Shown here: positions 2,578 to 12,312 of the stretch, in pieces
Layout: each line of letters opens with the position of its first letter
Numbering within the stretch: position 1 is the first letter of the stretch
Assembly: GCA_028122735.1 (NCBI GenBank)
Contig: JAOHSR010000002.1
Coordinates: 80,760-118,153, forward strand
Length of the DNA: 37,394 nt
DNA from: Flavobacteriales bacterium
GTDB lineage: Bacteria > Bacteroidota > Bacteroidia > Flavobacteriales > BACL11
Reading direction: 5' to 3'
The notes under the pieces: model-generated
Told to the model about the DNA's origin: nothing
Database searches by the model: none
What the model saw: only the letters and a program-made list of their open reading frames with translations
Program-made: the position numbers and the translations under genes

Positions 2578-4473
2578 TTAATATGCCCTTTTCTTATTGC
2601 CCTCAACATAATTAATAAATGCTTTTGTCACAACTTTGTTTCCCCCTGGTGTGGGATAATTACCAGTAAAATACCAATCTCCGCTATGTTTTGGGCATGC
2701 AATATGTAAATCCTCTATGCTTTGATAAATTATCTCAACCTCGGCCTTGGTATCTTTGGGTTTTAAAATTTGACTGATTTTTGAAGATATTTCTTTAGCT
2801 GAAAAAGGAGCATAGATCTCTTTAACGTAATTTTTCATTTCTTCTTTTGGCAGACTAATCTGTGCTGTACATTTTTTATATATCTCTTCAATAACCTCTT
2901 GCTTATTATTATCTTTTAATAATTCAATGGCCGCTTGAAAAGCAACAAAGTCACCTAGTATAGCCATGTCAATACCATAACAGTCGGGGTATCTTATTTG
3001 AGGAGCTGATGAAACAACAATAATTTTCTTAGGCCCTAATCGATCTAAAATTCTTAAAATAGACTGTTTTAAAGTTGTTCCCCGCACAATACTATCATCA
3101 ATAATTACTAAATTATCTTCACTACTTACCTTTCCATAAGTAATATCGTATACATGAGCTACAAGATCATCCCTATTAACATCTGAAGTAATAAATGTTC
3201 TGAGTTTTGCATCTTTAATAGCAATCTTTTCGGCTCTTGCGCTAATCTGCATAATCTCATTAATTTCTTCAGAACTTGGGTTACTTCCAAGGCGCTGAAT
3301 TTTTTCTGTTTTAACTTGGTTTAAATAACTATCTGCTGCTTTCATCATCCCATAGTAAGAAACCTCAGCTGTATTTGGAATATATGAAAAGACAGTGTTC
3401 TTAATATCTTTATCTACAGCCTCAAGAACTTTTGGAAAGACCTGCCTACCCAATTCAATTCTTTCGTTATAAATATCTTTGTCATTTCCTCTAGAAAAAT
3501 ATATTCTTTCAAAAGAACAGGCTTTGCGCTCCAAAGGTTTTACAACTTCTTTTTCTGAAAAGGTTCCATCATTTTTAATAATTAAAGCATGCCCTCTCTT
3601 AATTTCTTTAATCTTATTTATATGTATGTTAAATGTAGTCTGAATAACGGGTCTTTCTGAGGCAACCACAATAATTTCATCATCACTATAATAGTATGCA
3701 GGTCTTATTGCTGAAGGATCTCTTAATGCAAATGCGTCGCCATGCCCAAAAAGACCACACATTACATAACCTCCGTCCCAGTATTTGGATGAATTCTGTA
3801 ATATTTTTTGAATATCAAGCTCTTCCTCTATTTTTTTAGAAATTTCTTTTTTTGTAAAATCTCCCTTATATTTTTGATATATATTAATATTTTCTTCGTC
3901 CAAAAAATGACCAATCTTTTCAATTATTGTTATTGTATCAGATTTTTCTTTTGGGTGTTGTCCAAGATCTGTTAGGTGGCCAAAAAGCTCATCAACGTTA
4001 GTCATATTAAAATTGCCTGCTAACGCTAGGTTTCGTGTCTTCCAGTTATTTTGTCTTAAAAAAGGGTGGCATTGCTCAACGCTATTACCTCCATATGTTC
4101 CGTATCTAAGATGACCTAAAAACAATTCTCCTGTAAATGGCATGTTAGTTTTAAGCCATCTAATATCTTCCAATTTTTTGGGGTCGTTATCTTCAAGATC
4201 AATAAATTTTTTGTTAATCTGAGTAAATAATTCTTCAATAGGATTATTTGTTGTTGATCTTTTTCGGCTAATATATCTTTTACCCGCGGGGGTATTTAGC
4301 TTAACATTTGCCAATCCAGCACCATCTTGCCCCCTGTTCCTTTGCTTTTCCATGAGCAAATACATTTTTTTTAAAGCATAGAAGGATGTTCCGTATTTCT
4401 CTTTATAAAATTCAAGAGGTTTTAGAAGCCTTAGCATCGCCACACCGCACTCATGCTTTAAAGCATCACTCAT
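2578..4473 (-). CDS. purF: Amidophosphoribosyltransferase, long Bacteroidota form
   Basis: Catalyses the first committed step of purine synthesis: PRPP + glutamine -> phosphoribosylamine. The N-terminal Ntn-hydrolase (class II glutamine amidotransferase) domain starts MSDALKHECGVAML, with Cys9 as the likely nucleophile after removal of a short propeptide, and contains QRNRGQDGAGLAN. The C-terminal phosphoribosyltransferase domain shows the PRPP loop VIIDDSIVRGTTLKQS near residues 455-470. At 631 aa it is longer than the roughly 505-aa E. coli enzyme. This length is, as recalled, normal for the Bacteroidota branch and not a fusion to another recognisable domain. It has its own -7 box at 4492-4499, 18 bases upstream, although the glutaredoxin gene lies just upstream on the same strand. 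Confidence 0.95.
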   Translation of the reverse strand: MSDALKHECGVAMLRLLKPLEFYKEKYGTSFYALKKMYLLMEKQRNRGQDGAGLANVKLNTPAGKRYISRKRSTTNNPIEELFTQINKKFIDLEDNDPKKLEDIRWLKTNMPFTGELFLGHLRYGTYGGNSVEQCHPFLRQNNWKTRNLALAGNFNMTNVDELFGHLTDLGQHPKEKSDTITIIEKIGHFLDEENINIYQKYKGDFTKKEISKKIEEELDIQKILQNSSKYWDGGYVMCGLFGHGDAFALRDPSAIRPAYYYSDDEIIVVASERPVIQTTFNIHINKIKEIKRGHALIIKNDGTFSEKEVVKPLERKACSFERIYFSRGNDKDIYNERIELGRQVFPKVLEAVDKDIKNTVFSYIPNTAEVSYYGMMKAADSYLNQVKTEKIQRLGSNPSSEEINEIMQISARAEKIAIKDAKLRTFITSDVNRDDLVAHVYDITYGKVSSEDNLVIIDDSIVRGTTLKQSILRILDRLGPKKIIVVSSAPQIRYPDCYGIDMAILGDFVAFQAAIELLKDNNKQEVIEEIYKKCTAQISLPKEEMKNYVKEIYAPFSAKEISSKISQILKPKDTKAEVEIIYQSIEDLHIACPKHSGDWYFTGNYPTPGGNKVVTKAFINYVEGNKKRAY

Positions 4474-4503: not shown

Positions 4504-4737
4504 TTATTGCTTTATAATATTAGATAATTTACTAATTCCGGGATTTGCATATATTTCCCCATCAATAATAAAAGTAGGTATTATTCTTTTCCCATTATTT
4601 ATTTTTTTTACTAACTCAGTAGCCTCTGTGTTATTTGTAACATCTATATATTCATAATGAATATTATGTTCATCTAAATATTTTTTGGCGTAAACACAGT
4701 CTGAACACCAAGCAGCGCTATACATTATTATTTTCAT
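4504..4737 (-). CDS. Glutaredoxin-like thiol-disulfide oxidoreductase (77 aa)
   Basis: A small single-domain thioredoxin-fold protein. The redox motif is W-C-S-D-C (Cys11 and Cys14), the cis-proline is Pro54 in RIIPTF, and the last helix follows DGEIYANPGISKL. Length and arrangement resemble NrdH/Mrx-type mini-glutaredoxins, which transfer electrons to client disulfides in the cytoplasm. No client can be named from the sequence. No nrd gene is nearby. The start overlaps the 3' end of the upstream 97-aa gene by 20 bases, so translation of the two is probably coupled. It is the last gene of the operon that begins with the PLP decarboxylase. Confidence 0.85.
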   Translation of the reverse strand: MKIIMYSAAWCSDCVYAKKYLDEHNIHYEYIDVTNNTEATELVKKINNGKRIIPTFIIDGEIYANPGISKLSNIIKQ

Positions 4738-5011
4738 AAGCTTTAAATTTAAAAGTAATGTGATTTTGAATTATTGTACAAAGGTTACAATGTGAAAGAT
4801 AAGTAAATTTATATTCTAAATTAATATCGAAGCTGGCCTTATCAACATTAAATAATTTAGAACATTCCAACTCACCAATTTCTGAAAAACGTTCTATTTT
4901 GTAATTATCATTTTGCTTTGACAAGTGAAACCATGATCCAGCACCAATACCTCCAAGCCACTGAGATTCTTTTGGGGTTTTTTCGTTTTTTATTGGTGGA
5001 ATCAAACTCAT
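4718..5011 (-). CDS. Uncharacterised 97-aa protein with CxxC motif
   Basis: I do not recognise a function. The protein starts MSLIPPIKNE and has a Trp/Gly-rich segment WLGGIGAGSWFHL (residues 18-30). It then alternates short strands (ERFSEIGELECSKLF) and ends with TYLSHCNLCTIIQNHITF, in which Cys75 and Cys78 form CxxC; Cys50 is a third cysteine. No signal peptide or membrane segment is seen, so it is probably cytoplasmic. The ATG overlaps the stop of the upstream gene (ATGA, 4 bases) and the 3' end overlaps the glutaredoxin gene by 20 bases. This strongly suggests a real, co-translated gene. The adjacent mini-glutaredoxin makes a redox-active or metal-binding CxxC plausible, but that is inference. 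Confidence 0.75.
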   Translation of the reverse strand: MSLIPPIKNEKTPKESQWLGGIGAGSWFHLSKQNDNYKIERFSEIGELECSKLFNVDKASFDINLEYKFTYLSHCNLCTIIQNHITFKFKAYENNNV

Positions 5012-5661
5012 GATCTTTCAATACTTTTGAAATAAGAACCTAGTATACTTCTATTTATTTTTTTAACTATATTTTCTGTTACTTTATAAAAACCTGAATT
5101 GGCAATACCAACGTTTCTTTTGGGCGAGGGAGATATACAAAAAGGGAATTTGAGCCTTGCATTTTTTATAAATTTTGGGCTAGCACTTCTCATTACGGAA
5201 GCTACAAATCTTGAGCAATTAGTTCCATTATATACAAACGGTCCATAAAAAATTAACCCTTTTTGTTGAGTTCTTTTAGCGTATTTATATGCTTTATCAA
5301 ATGACACATCATTTAAGATAGAGGCATATAATGTTCCTTCACCATGACAAGAGTTTTTGTTTTTAATTTCTAATAAAATTTCATCAATGTTAGAAATCAT
5401 ATCACTTTTTATTTTTGCAATAGAATTTAAAGCTACATCACCATCTGTTTCAACATCCCTCACTCTACCATAATTTGGTGGCGAATGATATCTTCCAAAA
5501 TCAAAATATTGAAGCTTCCCTGATTGCCTATCAATCAAAACAACTGCTGAGTGCCCTACTCTATATTTTCCATTTCTAGCAAACAAAAAATCATACCATG
5601 CTCCAGCTGCAGAAACCATGCCTTCAGGCCAAGCAAGGGCAATGATAAAGTCGTTTTGCAT
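5008..5661 (-). CDS. Uncharacterised protein with probable permuted papain-like (NlpC/P60, LRAT-type) fold
   Basis: A 217-aa cytoplasmic-looking protein starting MQNDFIIALAWPEGMVSAAG. It resembles a flavobacterial family that I believe databases call DUF6695 (recalled, not checked). Visible blocks are GHSAVVLIDRQSGKLQYFDF (His37), GRYHSPPNYGRVR (His59), HGEGTLYAS and GTNCSRFVASV (Cys149). A G-H-x-x-V-V-L block before an N-C-x-x-F-V block is the order seen in circularly permuted NlpC/P60 proteins such as LRAT-like and YiiX-like enzymes. There His precedes the catalytic Cys, and the proteins act as amidases, thioesterases or acyltransferases. A hydrolase or transferase role is therefore inferred; the substrate is unknown. 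It lies 4 bases downstream of the decarboxylase and overlaps the 97-aa gene by 4 bases. Confidence 0.78.
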   Translation of the reverse strand: MQNDFIIALAWPEGMVSAAGAWYDFLFARNGKYRVGHSAVVLIDRQSGKLQYFDFGRYHSPPNYGRVRDVETDGDVALNSIAKIKSDMISNIDEILLEIKNKNSCHGEGTLYASILNDVSFDKAYKYAKRTQQKGLIFYGPFVYNGTNCSRFVASVMRSASPKFIKNARLKFPFCISPSPKRNVGIANSGFYKVTENIVKKINRSILGSYFKSIERS

Positions 5662-5665
5662 TTAA

Positions 5666-7057
5666 TTATTTAATTTTCTTAATAAGGTCTTTATTACTCT
5701 CAACAAATTCTTCCAAAGTTTTAAAAAAGTTTAAAATATCTTTTTTAGAATTTTCTCCATTAATTGTCACTAGTCGAATAAAACATTGTTTATTGAAATA
5801 TCCAAAGCCAACCATTACCTTGTTGTTTTCATAAAGCTTTGAGCATAGATCGATTGGGTCGTATTTTTTATAATTAAAACAAATTGATAATGAGTTTTCA
5901 AAACTATATAATTTGTAATTATCATTATTAACAACATAATCTCTTGCAAAATCAGCAAGATCAAACTCATGATTAATAATTTGAGAAATTCCTCTTGTTC
6001 CAATTGACTTCCACATTGTCCATAATTTCAGCGCATTATTTCTCCTACCACATTCGAATGATGTTTGCCCCAAATTATAGTCATTATCATGGGTTTGATA
6101 TAAGTAAGATGCTTTGTTACCGAATGATGTTTCTAAACATTTAACATCATTAACAACTAAAACAGAGGTGCTTAATGGTACACCCAATGTTTTATGTGCA
6201 TTAAAACAAAAAGAATCAGATTTTTCTACTCCTTGCACAAGGCTTTTATATTTGTCAGTAAAAATTACCGCTCCTCCAAAAGCCCCATCAACATGAAGCC
6301 ATAAATTATGTTTTTTTGAAATTTTTGATATCTCTTCAATATTATCAAAAGCACACAAAACAGTAGTTCCTGCTGTAGCATTAATATAAAATGGTACTAA
6401 GTTGTTATCTAAATCATTTTTTATCTGACTTTCTAAAAGCTTAAAATCCATTTGGCCATACTCATTACATTTGATGTATCGAACATTTTCTTTTCCTAAA
6501 CCAGAAAATGATGCGCTTTTTGCCATTGAATAGTGTGCGTTTTCAGAGGTATATGCAATAAGATTATCTTTAAAGCCTTTATTAATTATTTCTTTGTTTT
6601 TGTTATCCCTAGCAATAATTAATGACATAAAATTACTCATTGATCCTCCAGTAGGAAATGTACCTCCAGGTTTGTTATTATAACCAATAAGATCACATAC
6701 CTTTTTAATGATTTCTTTTTCTACCCCCACCTGAGGCCCTGAAATTTTGTAAGTAGCCATAGAGTTGTTAAGCAATACAGCTAACAAATCTCCCAAAATA
6801 CCCTTACTATGTCTTCCTCCAAAAAGCTGATTAAAAAAATATTTTGAAGAAGACTTAGGGGTAGATAAAATTAGTTGATGTAGCGTTTTCTTAAAATCAT
6901 CATCAATTGCTGGATAATCATTTAAGGCCAAATCAATTTTATCATATAAATCTTCGGGCTTTATATAATTTGAGAGTGGTTTTAGCTTTTCCTCTTTTAA
7001 AAAATCATTTGCAAGTTTATTAAATAGTTTTAAATCTTCCTGAATATTATTTTGCAT
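5666..7057 (-). CDS. PLP-dependent group II decarboxylase, acidic amino acid (GAD/CSAD-like) type
   Basis: A 463-aa pyridoxal-phosphate decarboxylase of the group II family. Recognisable blocks are TFPTGGSMSNFMSL, TAGTTVLCAFDNI, LWLHVDGAFGGAVIF and FCFNAHKTLGVPLS, with Lys289 as the PLP Schiff-base lysine. The C-terminal stretch ASYLYQ...FECGRRNNALKLWTMWKSIGTRG resembles animal cysteine sulfinate and glutamate decarboxylases more than bacterial GadB or aromatic decarboxylases. A substrate such as aspartate, cysteine sulfinate or glutamate (products beta-alanine, hypotaurine, GABA) is inferred. Cytoplasmic. First gene of a four-gene operon, with a -7 box 19 bases upstream. Diaminobutyrate or aromatic decarboxylase activity is the alternative. 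Confidence 0.88.
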   Translation of the reverse strand: MQNNIQEDLKLFNKLANDFLKEEKLKPLSNYIKPEDLYDKIDLALNDYPAIDDDFKKTLHQLILSTPKSSSKYFFNQLFGGRHSKGILGDLLAVLLNNSMATYKISGPQVGVEKEIIKKVCDLIGYNNKPGGTFPTGGSMSNFMSLIIARDNKNKEIINKGFKDNLIAYTSENAHYSMAKSASFSGLGKENVRYIKCNEYGQMDFKLLESQIKNDLDNNLVPFYINATAGTTVLCAFDNIEEISKISKKHNLWLHVDGAFGGAVIFTDKYKSLVQGVEKSDSFCFNAHKTLGVPLSTSVLVVNDVKCLETSFGNKASYLYQTHDNDYNLGQTSFECGRRNNALKLWTMWKSIGTRGISQIINHEFDLADFARDYVVNNDNYKLYSFENSLSICFNYKKYDPIDLCSKLYENNKVMVGFGYFNKQCFIRLVTINGENSKKDILNFFKTLEEFVESNKDLIKKIK

Positions 7058-7182: not shown

Positions 7183-10100
7183 ATGATGCTGAAAAAAATT
7201 TATTTTACTTTCTATTTTTTACTAACTGTTTTTTTAGTGAATTCTCAAGTAGTTATTAATGAATATTCAGCATCAAATTTTGACAGTCACCTTGATAATT
7301 ATGGTGAGTATGAAGATTGGGTAGAGCTTTACAACACTACAAACTCTGATATTGACTTAAATGGTTGGTCATTAACAGACAAGCCATCAAACCTTAGTAA
7401 GTGGTCTTTTCCTGGATCTTTTATAGTAAGTGCAAATAGTGTTGCTATTGTCTACTGTTCTGGTCTTAACGAACTTGTTGGTGGTATTGCACACACTAAT
7501 TTTAAGATAACACAAACAAAAACAAGCGAAGTATTTGTTCTTTCTGATGCAGGTGGAAACATTATTGATTCAGCAAGTGCTGTTCCAGCTCAAAAATCAC
7601 ACTCAAGAGGTAGGGATGTAAATGGCGGAACTACTTGGTCTGTTTTTACAACTGCAACACCAAACACAAACAACTCTGGAGCAATGCTTGAATATGCGCC
7701 ATTACCAATTTTTTCTCAATCATCCGGATATTACAGTGCTCCGTTTGACTTAACATTGAGTTGCGCTGATCCAAATGCTTTATTATATTATACAACAGAT
7801 GGAAGTAAACCAGATAATAGTTCCAACCTATATACAGGTCCTTTTAATATTTCTTCTACTTCAGTAGTAAAAGCTGTTGCATATAGCACAAATAGCTTGG
7901 TGCCTCCAAGTTTTATTGATTACCACACTTTTTTTATTAATGATACTCACACCGTTCCAATACTTTCTGTTTCTGGAGACAGTGTAGCTGTTTTGATTGA
8001 AGATGGATTACAAACTATTGGGAGCTGGTGGAATGGGACTCCACACGAACCTCAGGGAACAATTGAATGGTTTGATAAAAATGGTGTTTTAATTGATAAA
8101 GGTACTGGTGAGTTTAACAAGCATGGAAACGATTCTTGGGCTTATGATCAAAGAGGGTTTGATTACGTTATGAGAGATCAATTTGGGTATAATCATGCTC
8201 TTCAAGATAAAGTTTTTGACACAAAGAGTCGAGAAAAATTTCAAAGAGTTATTGTGAAGGCTGCAGCAAATGATAATTATCCTGCTGCTTTTGGAAGCTC
8301 TGGAGGACATATTAGAGATGCTTATATACACCACTTATCTCAGCTTGCCGATCTAAGACTAGATGAAAGATCAACAAAATCATGTGTGTTATATCTAAAT
8401 GGAGATTATTGGGGTGTTTATGAAATGAGAGAAAAAGTAGATGATCATGATTTTACTGACTACTATTACGATCAAGATAAAAATAATTTACAATACCTAA
8501 AAACCTGGGGTAATACATGGATTGAGTATGGTGGAGCGCAAGCTCAAACAGATTGGGATAATCTTAAAAATTATATCACAACTAACTCCATGGCAAATCA
8601 GGCAAATTATCAAACTGTAAAAAGCCAATATAATACTGGAAGTATTATTGACTACTTTTTACTCAATTCCTATGTGGTTTGTGGAGATTGGTTAAATTGG
8701 AATACCGCTTGGTGGAGAGGACTAGATACGAATGGAGAAAAGAAGAAGTGGAGATATACTCTCTGGGACATGGACAATACATTTGACCATGGAACAAATT
8801 ACACAGGTGTTCCTACAATGTCTGTAAATGCTGACCCTTGCGATCCAAGTAGTTTAAGTGACCCTGGTGGGCAAGGACACGTTCCTATTTGGAATGAGCT
8901 CTTAAATAATTCTGATTTTTTTGATGACTACTTAAATCGTTGGCAAGACTTGGCTAATGGTTATTTGTCATGCGATACAATGATTGCGGTTTTAGATAGT
9001 ATGATAAATGTCATTGACCCCGAAATGCCAAGGCAAATTGCTAAGTGGGGAGGAACATATACTGAGTGGCAATCAAATGTTCAAGACATTAGAGATTTTA
9101 TAAACGCCCGATGTAGCATAATGAATGCTGGCTTTGGACCTTGTTATCCTGCGCTTTCAGGCCCTCACAATATTACGGTTCAAATTTTAGGAATTGGAGA
9201 GGTAGAAATGAGTGATGGAAATTTAATAAATCAAAATAATACTGGCTGGACTGATCAGAGGTATGGTGGTGTTAATCTTCCTTTTGAAGTGAAAAGCGGA
9301 ACTTTTCAAAATTGGGAAATAGTCCCTAGTGGTGTTTATACATATGATCCGTTTGTAGATACTTTAGTATTAGACCTTCAGGGGAATGTGACTGTAATAG
9401 CAAACTTTATTCCTCCTGTAGAAACAAGAGACATAACCTATAAAATTAACCCTCCGGGAACTGCCTCAGATATAATAGTGGATGGAAATAATCTTGGTAC
9501 TATTCCAAGTACAATTACATATACCTTAGGTGACACTGTGACTGCCTCCCCTGTTATTGATCCATTATATGGTTTTAGCAATTGGACAAGTGATAGTATA
9601 AGTATTTTACCACAAAACAGTAGTCAGAATATTTCTTTTTATACCAATAATCATGATACGATAACTCTAAACTTGTATTTACTACCAACGATTGAAGCTT
9701 TTATTTCTGGAAGTGATACTATTTGCTCCAATAAAAACACTCCTGCTGAAGTAAGTGTGGCTTTTACTGGAATTGCTCCTTATACTTTTAATTACTCAGT
9801 AAATGGGACTATCCAAAGTGAAATAACAACTACCAACAATCCATATACTATCGAAACAAATGAAGGTGGAGTTTATAATCTAATTAGTTTTTCTGATGCT
9901 GTAGAGCAAGGAGGACTTAGTGGTCAGGCTTTTGTAACTATTCAAGACGCTCCTGTTGCTGACTTTAAGTTAAGTCCAAATGAAACAAGTGTCATCTATA
10001 CTACTATTAAAATGATAGATAAGTCTACTAATAATACAAATAGTTGGCAATGGGATTTTGGCGATAATCTAGGATATAGTACAGTGCAAAATCCTTCATA

Positions 10101-10503
10101 TACTTATCCTGAGGAAGTATCTCAGTATCAAATATTTTTAAAGGTTAGAAATGCTGCTGGCTGTGCCGATTCGATCTATAAGATTCTAAATATTGTTGAT
10201 GACCATTGGATTTATGTTCCAAATTCCTACACGCCAAATTCGGATGCGAAAAATGATCGCTTCATTATTGATCACTACGGTGTCTTGGAGCAAAGCTTTT
10301 CTATAAATATCTTTAATCGATTAAACGAATTAGTTTTCTCGAGCAATAATATTGATGAGTTAAACAAGGAAAATGGTTGGGATGGTAAGCATCTTTTTAA
10401 AGGATTTGATCTGCCTTCGGGAACATATATATATGAACTTTCATATCAAGATATTGAAGGCTGGAAGCACTATAAGACAGGTAAGATTAACTTAATCCGG
10501 TAA
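7183..10503 (+). CDS. Secreted multidomain CotH kinase-family protein with lamin-tail, chitobiase-like and PKD domains and a type B T9SS tail
   Basis: 1106 aa. Signal peptide MMLKKIYFTFYFLLTVFLVNSQ. Domains in order: lamin-tail domain (about 22-125; INEYSA, EDWVELYNT, IDLNGWSLTDK); chitobiase/beta-hexosaminidase C-terminal-type repeat (about 180-255; YYTTDGSKPDNSSNLYTGPF); CotH domain (about 260-570; VLYLNGDYWGVYEMREKVDD and LWDMDNTFDHG with Asp529/Asp531); beta-rich modules; a PKD domain (about 925-1000; SWQWDFGDN); and a gliding-associated C-terminal domain (about 1010-1106; VPNSYTPNSDAKNDRF, GWDGK, SGTYIYEL). CotH proteins are atypical kinases known from Bacillus spore coats; the role in Bacteroidota is unknown. 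The C-terminal tail implies export by the type IX secretion system and display at or beyond the outer membrane. The next CotH gene follows after 3 bases. Confidence 0.9.
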   Translation: MMLKKIYFTFYFLLTVFLVNSQVVINEYSASNFDSHLDNYGEYEDWVELYNTTNSDIDLNGWSLTDKPSNLSKWSFPGSFIVSANSVAIVYCSGLNELVGGIAHTNFKITQTKTSEVFVLSDAGGNIIDSASAVPAQKSHSRGRDVNGGTTWSVFTTATPNTNNSGAMLEYAPLPIFSQSSGYYSAPFDLTLSCADPNALLYYTTDGSKPDNSSNLYTGPFNISSTSVVKAVAYSTNSLVPPSFIDYHTFFINDTHTVPILSVSGDSVAVLIEDGLQTIGSWWNGTPHEPQGTIEWFDKNGVLIDKGTGEFNKHGNDSWAYDQRGFDYVMRDQFGYNHALQDKVFDTKSREKFQRVIVKAAANDNYPAAFGSSGGHIRDAYIHHLSQLADLRLDERSTKSCVLYLNGDYWGVYEMREKVDDHDFTDYYYDQDKNNLQYLKTWGNTWIEYGGAQAQTDWDNLKNYITTNSMANQANYQTVKSQYNTGSIIDYFLLNSYVVCGDWLNWNTAWWRGLDTNGEKKKWRYTLWDMDNTFDHGTNYTGVPTMSVNADPCDPSSLSDPGGQGHVPIWNELLNNSDFFDDYLNRWQDLANGYLSCDTMIAVLDSMINVIDPEMPRQIAKWGGTYTEWQSNVQDIRDFINARCSIMNAGFGPCYPALSGPHNITVQILGIGEVEMSDGNLINQNNTGWTDQRYGGVNLPFEVKSGTFQNWEIVPSGVYTYDPFVDTLVLDLQGNVTVIANFIPPVETRDITYKINPPGTASDIIVDGNNLGTIPSTITYTLGDTVTASPVIDPLYGFSNWTSDSISILPQNSSQNISFYTNNHDTITLNLYLLPTIEAFISGSDTICSNKNTPAEVSVAFTGIAPYTFNYSVNGTIQSEITTTNNPYTIETNEGGVYNLISFSDAVEQGGLSGQAFVTIQDAPVADFKLSPNETSVIYTTIKMIDKSTNNTNSWQWDFGDNLGYSTVQNPSYTYPEEVSQYQIFLKVRNAAGCADSIYKILNIVDDHWIYVPNSYTPNSDAKNDRFIIDHYGVLEQSFSINIFNRLNELVFSSNNIDELNKENGWDGKHLFKGFDLPSGTYIYELSYQDIEGWKHYKTGKINLIR

Positions 10504-10506
10504 CAA

Positions 10507-12312
10507 ATGTTTACTTTACAGTCAAAAGCATATTATAGCTTTTTCCTTTGCTTAGTGGCTTTTTCTTTATCATTCAATCTACACTCGCAAACACTGTTCA
10601 ACTATAGCCCACAAGGCCTTTATGATGGGCCTGGTGGTATGTATGAAAAAGATTCTCTTAGAACATTATATGTTAATTTTCATGATCCTAATTACCATTC
10701 TATTTTACAAAACTCCTTTTTTACCAATCCATCATACAGAATTCCTGCGAGCATAACTTTAGGAGATATTACTTTAGACAGTATTGGTGTGAGATACAAG
10801 GGCAATTCTACGTTTTGCATACCAAATGATAATGGCGTGCCTAAAGTTCCATATAACTTAGATATGAATTACTGGATATCTGGGCAAAAACTATTAGGAT
10901 ATAAAAAATTAAAGCTTGCTAACGCCTGGATGGATGCAACTTTTCAAAAAGAATATATTGCTTCTAAAATCTACCAAAAATACTTGCCTTCTCCAGAGGT
11001 TAATTTAATGAAACTTAATGTACAAGGAAATTATTTAGGGTTATACGTTAATACGGAATCAATCAACAAACAATTTGCAAAAAAGCATTTTGACTATGAT
11101 GACGGCGCCTTATTTAAATGTGACGCTAGTGGAATGTTTTGTGATACAACGGGAACGCCTCCGGGTGGATACCCTGGGCTAAACTGGAATGGGTCTTCAG
11201 ATAGCACATTATATTACTCTAGTTATGACATAAAATCAAATCATGGTTGGAAAGAATTTATTGATATGATATATGCTTTAAATTTCACTCCAAATAATCT
11301 TGATTCTTTTTTAAATATTGATAGGGCTCTATGGGCCTTTGCTGTTAACACCGTTATTGGAAACTTTGATAGTTATAATGGATACTATGTTCACAACTAC
11401 TATATGTACCAAAATGAAGATAATCTGTTTCAAATGATTCCATGGGATTTAAGTCAGAGCTTTATTAATGCTTTGCTTGGATGGGATATTTTCACACCAT
11501 TAGGCCCTACTCATCCAACACAATACGACCCTTACTATGGTTCTGACCCCTCTCTGTTTAGGCCCTTAACCGAATTTCTTTTTAATAATGCAGAGTACAG
11601 AAGACTATATACTGCTCATTTAAGAACAGTGATAAATGAAATAGACACAAATCAAATAAGAAGCGAGGTGCAAACTATGCAGGCAATGGCCTACACTGCC
11701 ATGGATAATGACATACACAAGCTCTTTTCTAGCGCTGACTACTTTAATAATGTGGAGCAAGATATTAGTAATTTGGCCTGGGGAGGGTATGGATTTGGAG
11801 GAATAATGTCATGTTTAAGACATAGAATTCCCTTCTTACTTGCGCATTCAGAAATAAGCGCAACTCCACCAAATATATTTAACGTACAGGTTGACAATGG
11901 GATTATAACTGCAAATGTTAATAACGAATCCTATGTTGAGCTAATGGCAACAGTTAGCGAATATAATTCAAAGTTTACCTCCTTTAATATGTATGATGAT
12001 GGAACAAATGGTGATGACCAAACAAATGACGGTATTTATTCGTGTTATGTTCCGTTTGCTACATCTCCTTTAGTAAAGTTTTATGTAAAGGCTAGAAACT
12101 CTCAAGCAATGATGCTTTCACCTGAAAGAGCTGAATATGAGTTTTATGAATACTACTCCATTTCTCATGTTTTGGACAAACCCCAATCGATTAATAAAGA
12201 AATTGTTTTTATTACAGATATGTTGGGCAAGAAATCCAAATTCAAATACAATACTCCTCTAATTTTTATTTATAATGATGGCAGTGCTGAAAAGAAATTC
12301 TTTGTAAAATAA
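10507..12312 (+). CDS. Second secreted CotH kinase-family protein, probable type A T9SS tail
   Basis: 601 aa. N-terminal signal peptide (hydrophobic stretch, cleavage near HSQ at residue 27). The CotH domain spans about 45-430: IGVRYKGNST, YKKLKLANAW, VQGNYLGLYVNTES and MIPWDLSQSF (Asp314). The W-D motif is followed by L-S rather than the M-D seen in the upstream paralogue, so catalytic competence is less certain. A beta-sandwich follows (about 455-560), containing the acidic DDGTNGDDQTNDGIYS. The last 40 residues (ITDMLGKKSKF, then LIFIYNDGSAEKKFFVK) resemble a shortened Por/type A T9SS sorting domain. It lies 3 bases downstream of the first CotH gene, so the two are surely co-transcribed and probably work on the same surface process. 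Confidence 0.87.
   Translation: MFTLQSKAYYSFFLCLVAFSLSFNLHSQTLFNYSPQGLYDGPGGMYEKDSLRTLYVNFHDPNYHSILQNSFFTNPSYRIPASITLGDITLDSIGVRYKGNSTFCIPNDNGVPKVPYNLDMNYWISGQKLLGYKKLKLANAWMDATFQKEYIASKIYQKYLPSPEVNLMKLNVQGNYLGLYVNTESINKQFAKKHFDYDDGALFKCDASGMFCDTTGTPPGGYPGLNWNGSSDSTLYYSSYDIKSNHGWKEFIDMIYALNFTPNNLDSFLNIDRALWAFAVNTVIGNFDSYNGYYVHNYYMYQNEDNLFQMIPWDLSQSFINALLGWDIFTPLGPTHPTQYDPYYGSDPSLFRPLTEFLFNNAEYRRLYTAHLRTVINEIDTNQIRSEVQTMQAMAYTAMDNDIHKLFSSADYFNNVEQDISNLAWGGYGFGGIMSCLRHRIPFLLAHSEISATPPNIFNVQVDNGIITANVNNESYVELMATVSEYNSKFTSFNMYDDGTNGDDQTNDGIYSCYVPFATSPLVKFYVKARNSQAMMLSPERAEYEFYEYYSISHVLDKPQSINKEIVFITDMLGKKSKFKYNTPLIFIYNDGSAEKKFFVK

What the first reader, a model, noticed from the sequence alone, without database searches (positions are those of the whole stretch)
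4504..7057. Compact four-gene operon joining a PLP decarboxylase, a cysteine-hydrolase-like protein, a CxxC protein and a glutaredoxin
Gaps and overlaps are 4 bases, -4 and -20, so the four genes are almost certainly made together. Two of the four have no known function, and both carry cysteine motifs likely to need reduction; the fourth gene is a thiol reductase. One hypothesis is that the decarboxylase makes an amine (beta-alanine, hypotaurine or GABA-like), the permuted papain-like enzyme attaches or removes it through a thioester intermediate, and the small proteins keep thiols active. This is the best candidate for an undescribed system in the window.
Basis: inference. Interest (0 to 1): 0.55.

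Follow-up and report, generated by a model that had tools for sequence, protein, structure and literature searches.

The report
Decarboxylase operon with split papain-like enzyme
In a family of small-genome Bacteroidota, an amino-acid decarboxylase is made together with a papain-like enzyme encoded in two pieces, and relatives keep pairing that enzyme with unrelated amine-making enzymes, which hints at an undescribed pathway that joins or releases small amines.

Summary
The operon is real and larger than reported: decarboxylase (DEC), TseH-like cysteine enzyme, DUF6695, glutaredoxin, and a fifth gene, PurF-like, 30 nt further on. In the host family the order holds across genera: of 44 loci with a TseH ORF, 37 have DEC, 35 glutaredoxin and 43 PurF-like within three genes on the same strand. 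The two 'unknown' genes are halves of one protein: 7 of 8 other TseH-positive genomes in a 247-genome phylum sample carry both in one ORF. Outside the family TseH-DUF6695 recurs beside other decarboxylases: a second, distinct PanD with a CysK-like enzyme, a LysA-like one with a PLP enzyme, or another DEC with cysteine dioxygenase. All 4 genomes with two PanD in that sample are TseH-positive. The fold is permuted papain (6v98, Z 17.9), a group known for acyl chemistry. Best guess, inferred and not shown: the decarboxylase makes an amine (taurine, hypotaurine or beta-alanine) and TseH-DUF6695 acylates it through a cysteine thioester. In this family DEC may also replace PanD (PanD 0 of 52, PanC 42 of 52).

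The parts
5666..7057 (-). DEC: group II PLP amino-acid decarboxylase, 463 aa; PLP lysine K289 by alignment to GADL1/CSAD/GAD
   Evidence: PF00282 E 7.3e-74; best PDB sequence relatives GADL1 6enz 5e-69 and CSAD 2jis 2e-66; K289
5008..5661 (-). TseH-like catalytic half: permuted NlpC/P60 papain-like cysteine enzyme; H37, D54, R57, R66, R68, C149 kept in 44 of 44 family members
   Evidence: PF25218 E 1.7e-45; residues; model of the fused homologue, pLDDT 92.6, matches 6v98 at Z 17.9
4718..5011 (-). DUF6695 half (C-terminal beta domain of the fused homologues), with E-C and H-C-x-x-C cysteines kept in the family
   Evidence: PF20405 E 9.9e-28; same ORF as TseH in other Bacteroidota; Cys in 38/38, 37/38, 37/38
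5008..5011 (-). ATGA overlap of the TseH stop and DUF6695 start: where the gene that is fused elsewhere is split
4504..4737 (-). Glutaredoxin-like thiol protein, CSDC motif
   Evidence: PF00462 E 1.7e-13; first Cys 35 of 35, second 34 of 35
2578..4473 (-). PurF-like glutamine amidotransferase/phosphoribosyltransferase, 631 aa; fifth gene of the operon
   Evidence: PurF PDB relatives E 6e-23; NCBIfam purF 121.8 bits, under its cut-off of 350; beside TseH in 43 of 44 family loci

Best explanation
A five-gene operon built around one split enzyme. DEC removes CO2 from an acidic amino acid (aspartate, cysteate or cysteine sulfinate) and gives a small zwitterionic amine (beta-alanine, taurine or hypotaurine). 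TseH and DUF6695, two halves of one protein, form a permuted papain-like enzyme whose Cys149-His37 pair takes an acyl group as a thioester and passes it to that amine, with conserved arginines (57, 66, 68) holding the amine's acid group; the product would be an N-acyl amine. The glutaredoxin keeps the cysteines of TseH and DUF6695 reduced. PurF-like has an unknown, perhaps only co-regulated, role. Shown: operon, split, homology, fold of the fused homologue, recurrent decarboxylase partners. Inferred: substrate, acyl transfer, product, roles of the arginines and of the glutaredoxin.
For: Order conserved in the family. TseH-DUF6695 sits beside amino-acid decarboxylases of three unrelated kinds: GAD-type (host family; L180, L181), pyruvoyl PanD (26 of 79 GTDB loci) and LysA-type (19 of 79). 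Each kind is sometimes joined by an enzyme that could make its amino acid: cysteine dioxygenase before DEC in L180 and beside it in L216, CysK-like before TseH-PanD (CysK-like in 21 of 79), a fold-type-I PLP enzyme before the LysA-like one. The TseH-linked PanD (PanD2) is a separate clade (100/99) from the canonical PanD of the same genomes, with Asn and His where E. coli PanD has Trp47 and Ile86 in the alignment (that these two line the pocket is recalled). All 4 genomes with two PanD among 247 are TseH-positive (p about 5e-7, or 2e-5 counted as 3 lineages). Permuted NlpC/P60 enzymes act on acyl groups, and TseH of Vibrio cholerae cleaves a phospholipid in liposomes (PMC12994826, passages). 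Another partner outside the family is an NRDE/TANGO2 protein; human TANGO2 binds acyl-CoA (PMC11867700, start of abstract in the search listing).
Against: No acyl donor, amine or product was tested. Many TseH-DUF6695 loci have no decarboxylase nearby: 32 of 79 GTDB loci, 17 of 19 order loci and 7 of 9 phylum loci lack one on the same strand within three genes. The GTDB loci are the best 80 of 498 relatives of a PanD2-linked query, so proportions are biased. CDO is absent from the host family (0 of 52). There DEC may simply feed pantothenate synthesis.
Confidence: 0.35

Rival explanations
1. Amide or ester hydrolase: TseH-DUF6695 cleaves acyl-amine or amino-acid conjugates, and DEC processes the released amino acid (salvage rather than synthesis).
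For: The only solved sequence relative, 6v98, is called a cysteine hydrolase and its tested activity is lipid cleavage; gene order alone gives no direction.
Against: Beside it stand enzymes that look biosynthetic (CysK-like, cysteine dioxygenase, decarboxylases), and a salvage route would not obviously need three unrelated decarboxylases.
Confidence: 0.27
2. In this family DEC is only the beta-alanine source for pantothenate/CoA (a PLP-type stand-in for PanD), and its neighbours are there through an inherited gene order or a CoA-linked thiol function.
For: PanD 0 of 52, PanC 42 of 52 (14 of 15 good genomes), DEC 42 of 52 (14 of 15) in the family; GADL1, its closest solved relative by sequence, can make beta-alanine from aspartate (PMC7367687, passages).
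Against: Elsewhere the TseH-linked decarboxylase coexists with a separate canonical PanD: G277, G301, G302 and G303 each have one PanD plus DEC or the LysA-like enzyme near TseH, and seven genomes with PanD beside TseH have two PanD. So the shared link to TseH is not pantothenate. In the host family one enzyme may do both jobs.
Confidence: 0.25
3. Antibacterial toxin: the TseH-like protein is an injected effector with DUF6695 as partner, as the TseH clade has been described.
For: Pfam name TseH; PMC12994826 states that the TseH clade (which it calls Pfam DUF6695) has conflict contexts (passage).
Against: 45 of 52 family genomes and 15 of 15 good ones carry it; no T6SS sheath protein VipB in 52 genomes; neighbours are metabolic.
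Confidence: 0.03
4. Compaction: unrelated housekeeping genes simply packed together in a small genome.
For: Genomes of about 1-2 Mb; glutaredoxin and PurF are neighbours only in this family.
Against: Order and overlaps persist over many genera; TseH with a decarboxylase also recurs in larger genomes of 3-7 Mb.
Confidence: 0.1

Closest known systems
TseH of Vibrio cholerae (PF25218, PDB 6v98), permuted NlpC/P60 clade
   Same: Family E 1.7e-45; fold Z 17.9 over 172 residues for the fused homologue; His-before-Cys order
   Different: Here tied to DUF6695 and a decarboxylase, near-universal in the family, no VipB; no toxin context seen
LRAT/HRASLS, YiiX and DUF4105/Lnb enzymes (permuted NlpC/P60)
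   Same: Same superfamily and thiol catalysis according to PMC12994826 (passages)
   Different: No direct sequence match to them was found here; substrates unknown
GADL1 / cysteine sulfinate decarboxylase
   Same: DEC's best solved sequence relatives
   Different: Bacterial, 463 aa, in an operon with TseH; substrate not tested
PanD aspartate 1-decarboxylase
   Same: The PanD beside TseH passes TIGR00223 (133.6 and 133.9 bits, cut-off 106)
   Different: Separate clade with five alignment columns wholly different from canonical PanD (21 of 21 against 28 of 28)
PanP (PLP-dependent aspartate decarboxylase)
   Same: Would be the functional parallel if DEC makes beta-alanine
   Different: TIGR03799 gives 126.8 bits, cut-off 606.1

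Membership tests
PF25218 TseH-like | Profile match over the curated cut-off | tested here: met
   155.4 bits, cut-off 27
Permuted NlpC/P60 superfamily | Catalytic His before catalytic Cys, both invariant | tested here: met
   H43 and C157 invariant in 42 sequences; H37 and C149 in 44 of 44 family members
Permuted NlpC/P60 superfamily | Permuted papain-like fold | tested here: met
   Model of the fused homologue from L103 against 6v98: Z 17.9, rmsd 2.9, 172 aligned; the window protein itself was not modelled
Permuted NlpC/P60 superfamily | Acyl transfer or lipid cleavage | not testable with these tools
   needs an assay
T6SS effector | T6SS machinery in the genome | tested here: not met
   VipB PF05943 in 0 of 52 family genomes; control rings in 1 of 14 (E. 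coli); a very divergent sheath could be missed
DUF6695 C-terminal domain PF20405 | Profile match | tested here: met
   96.7 bits, cut-off 25
Group II PLP decarboxylase PF00282 | Profile match and PLP lysine | tested here: met
   249.2 bits, cut-off 27; K289 aligns with the HK lysine of GADL1, CSAD and GAD
PanP | TIGR03799 cut-off | tested here: not met
   126.8 against 606.1 bits
Cysteine sulfinate / aspartate decarboxylase | Activity on cysteine sulfinate, cysteate or aspartate | not testable with these tools
   only similarity to GADL1 and CSAD
Canonical PurF | NCBIfam purF cut-off | tested here: not met
   121.8 against 350 bits
Glutaredoxin PF00462 | Profile match and CxxC | tested here: met
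   51 bits, cut-off 22.9; Cys in 35/35 and 34/35
Mycoredoxin TIGR02200 | Curated cut-off | tested here: not met
   63.3 against 89.5 bits

The most novel reading that the evidence does not exclude
A Bacteroidota-wide, undescribed pathway makes N-acylated sulfur or beta amines (taurine, hypotaurine or beta-alanine): TseH-DUF6695 is the constant acyltransferase, while the amine is supplied by interchangeable, non-homologous decarboxylases (GAD-type, a new PanD2 acting on a substrate other than aspartate, or LysA-type).
Probability: 0.22. Interest if true: 0.8.

Novelty: new variant of a known kind. Interest (0 to 1): 0.55.

Why it matters
A family named after a toxin turns out to be a core, apparently metabolic gene in small-genome Bacteroidota, tied to amine synthesis. 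If the acyl-transfer reading holds, it would add a new class of bacterial N-acyl amines and give a function to DUF6695, to a second PanD family and to a PLP enzyme without a Pfam family. It also gives a direct candidate (DEC) for how a PanD-less family obtains beta-alanine.

Tried and rejected
Considered and rejected: T6SS toxin (no VipB in 52 genomes; metabolic neighbours); two separate unknown proteins (fused elsewhere); hypotaurine by cysteine dioxygenase in this family (CDO 0 of 52); PanD2 as the pantothenate enzyme (each of seven genomes with PanD beside TseH also has a canonical PanD). An aspartate-versus-cysteine-sulfinate signature in DEC was looked for by eye in the alignment without a decision. 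Literature: DUF6695 occurs in 1 paper; TseH with 'cysteine hydrolase' in 1; searches on bacterial taurine and PanD and on N-acyl taurine or aminolipids listed nothing that I recognised as this gene group; the library is open-access only. The structure-library rows for the DUF6695 half (about residues 256-338) were all weak (Z 4.5 or less); no fold claim is made. Human CLN5 (6r99) came second for the catalytic half at Z 5.3, too low to rely on. Rows dropped: L093 (only TseH fragments), L166 and L226 (no TseH ORF passed my filter) are missing from the counts. The script built the TseH tree but stopped on overlapping groups; one search showed it again.

Full report
What is there. On the minus strand, DEC (5666-7057), a TseH-like cysteine enzyme (5008-5661), DUF6695 (4718-5011), a glutaredoxin (4504-4737) and a PurF-like gene (2578-4473) follow one another with gaps of 4, -4, -20 and 30 nt. 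Pfam names the first four PF00282, PF25218, PF20405 and PF00462; the fifth matches PurF below the family cut-off (NCBIfam 121.8 bits, cut-off 350) and PurF structures at E 6e-23.

Conservation in the host family. The window lies in a 1.03-Mb, 54-contig assembly that is 58.7% complete. TseH is found in 45 of 52 family genomes and in 15 of 15 good ones. Of 45 family loci examined, 44 have a TseH ORF; DEC is within three genes on the same strand in 37, glutaredoxin in 35, PurF-like in 43. Of the seven without DEC there, four have it about 6 to 9 kb away (G042, G043, G051, G009), and the other three loci (L051, L066, L080) run into a contig end on the upstream side. DEC itself is found in 42 of 52 genomes.

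One protein in two genes. In an even sample of 247 genomes of the phylum, PF25218 and PF20405 hit exactly the same 9 genomes. Besides the window's genome, 7 of the other 8 have both in one ORF of 319-373 aa and one (G096) is split. A tree of 73 TseH sequences (26 split, 47 fused; a hand-chosen subset) needs three changes between split and fused.

Partners elsewhere. A scan of named genomes gave 498 relatives, of which the best 80 were kept. Of 79 with a TseH ORF, 47 have an amino-acid decarboxylase on the same strand within three genes: PanD 26, LysA-like 19, DEC-type 2; CysK-like stands within the same distance in 21. The query was a PanD-linked Sphingobacterium protein, so these shares are biased. 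In less biased samples the decarboxylase is rarer: 2 of 9 phylum loci and 2 of 19 order loci (20 chosen by hand from the 95 genomes) on the same strand, with a DEC on the other strand in 1 and 2 more. Other partners are NRDE/TANGO2 proteins (L094, L097, L174, L176 and five order loci), Lrp regulators and HAD hydrolases. L180 carries cysteine dioxygenase, DEC, TseH, DUF6695 and a rhodanese-thioredoxin protein in a row; L216 carries DEC and a cysteine dioxygenase (E 2.8e-23) within a few genes of TseH-DUF6695. The window's DEC is 53-56% identical to the DEC of L095, L216 and L219 but 34-36% to those of L180 and L181, so at least two DEC types are involved.

A second PanD. Seven of seven tested genomes with PanD beside TseH also hold a canonical PanD. 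In the 247-genome sample 215 have PanD and four have two copies, all four TseH-positive; the chance of this is 4.7e-7 without the window's genome, or 2.3e-5 counted as three lineages. In two of the four, of one genus, the second copy is not near TseH. The second copies (28 rows) form one clade against 21 canonical ones (100/99), with five columns wholly different. Against E. coli PanD (1ppy) the Sphingobacterium copy keeps Ser25, Arg54, Thr57 and Tyr58 and has Asn for Trp47 and His for Ile86; that these residues line the pocket is recalled.

The LysA-like branch. In Owenweeksia- and Schleiferiaceae-type genomes TseH-DUF6695 is followed by a 469-aa protein without a Pfam match whose model (pLDDT 86) is a fold-type-I PLP enzyme (6rv0, Z 24.6, rmsd 3.7, 358 aligned), then by a PF02784 decarboxylase. 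Sulfur-type genes, a metallo-lactamase/rhodanese protein and a TauE/SafE exporter, often stand on the opposite strand nearby.

Fold and chemistry. The fused homologue from Sphingobacterium (L103) was modelled at pLDDT 92.6 and matches TseH 6v98 at Z 17.9. His43, Asp60, Arg63, Arg72, Arg74 and Cys157 are invariant in 42 sequences; by the alignment they correspond to window H37, D54, R57, R66, R68 and C149. PMC12994826 (passages read) places TseH among permuted NlpC/P60 enzymes that act on acyl groups and shows phospholipase activity for TseH; it reads the TseH clade as a conflict clade, which the Bacteroidota neighbourhoods seen here do not fit.

Beta-alanine in the family. PanD 0 of 52, PanC 42 of 52, DEC 42 of 52. 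Its closest solved relative by sequence, GADL1, uses aspartate and cysteine sulfinate (PMC7367687, passages). DEC is therefore a good candidate for the missing aspartate decarboxylase, possibly besides a role with TseH. Cysteine dioxygenase is absent (0 of 52), so hypotaurine by that route is not supported here.

Judgement. The operon, the split enzyme and the recurring decarboxylase link are well supported. Acyl transfer to the amine is the mechanism I think most likely (0.35), hydrolysis next (0.27), a pantothenate-only role for DEC next (0.25).

Noticed in passing
window 2578-4473: Long PurF-like protein (631 aa) with a DDSIVRG phosphoribosyl motif but under the purF cut-off; conserved last gene of the operon in 43 of 44 family loci.
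   Followed up: partly
L231, L232: Second PanD copy between TerC-, DoxX- and ApbE-like ORFs (named by eye, not searched), away from TseH, in genus g36.
   Followed up: partly
L149:7037-8446 and relatives: PLP fold-type-I enzyme without any Pfam or NCBIfam match; 12 aligned members with 70% mean column identity.
   Followed up: partly
L068, L089, L093: Tandem TseH copies; one copy in G012 is broken by many stops.
   Followed up: no
L065: PurF-like ORF appears as two pieces of 299 and 330 aa.
   Followed up: no
window 7183-12312: Two large genes divergent from DEC (1106 and 601 aa, lamin-tail/CotH-like by eye, not searched); the first keeps its place beside DEC through most of the family.
   Followed up: no
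L099, L129, L130, L134, L137, L138: Second TseH-DUF6695 paralogue group in Sphingobacteriaceae, beside an Lrp-type regulator.
   Followed up: no
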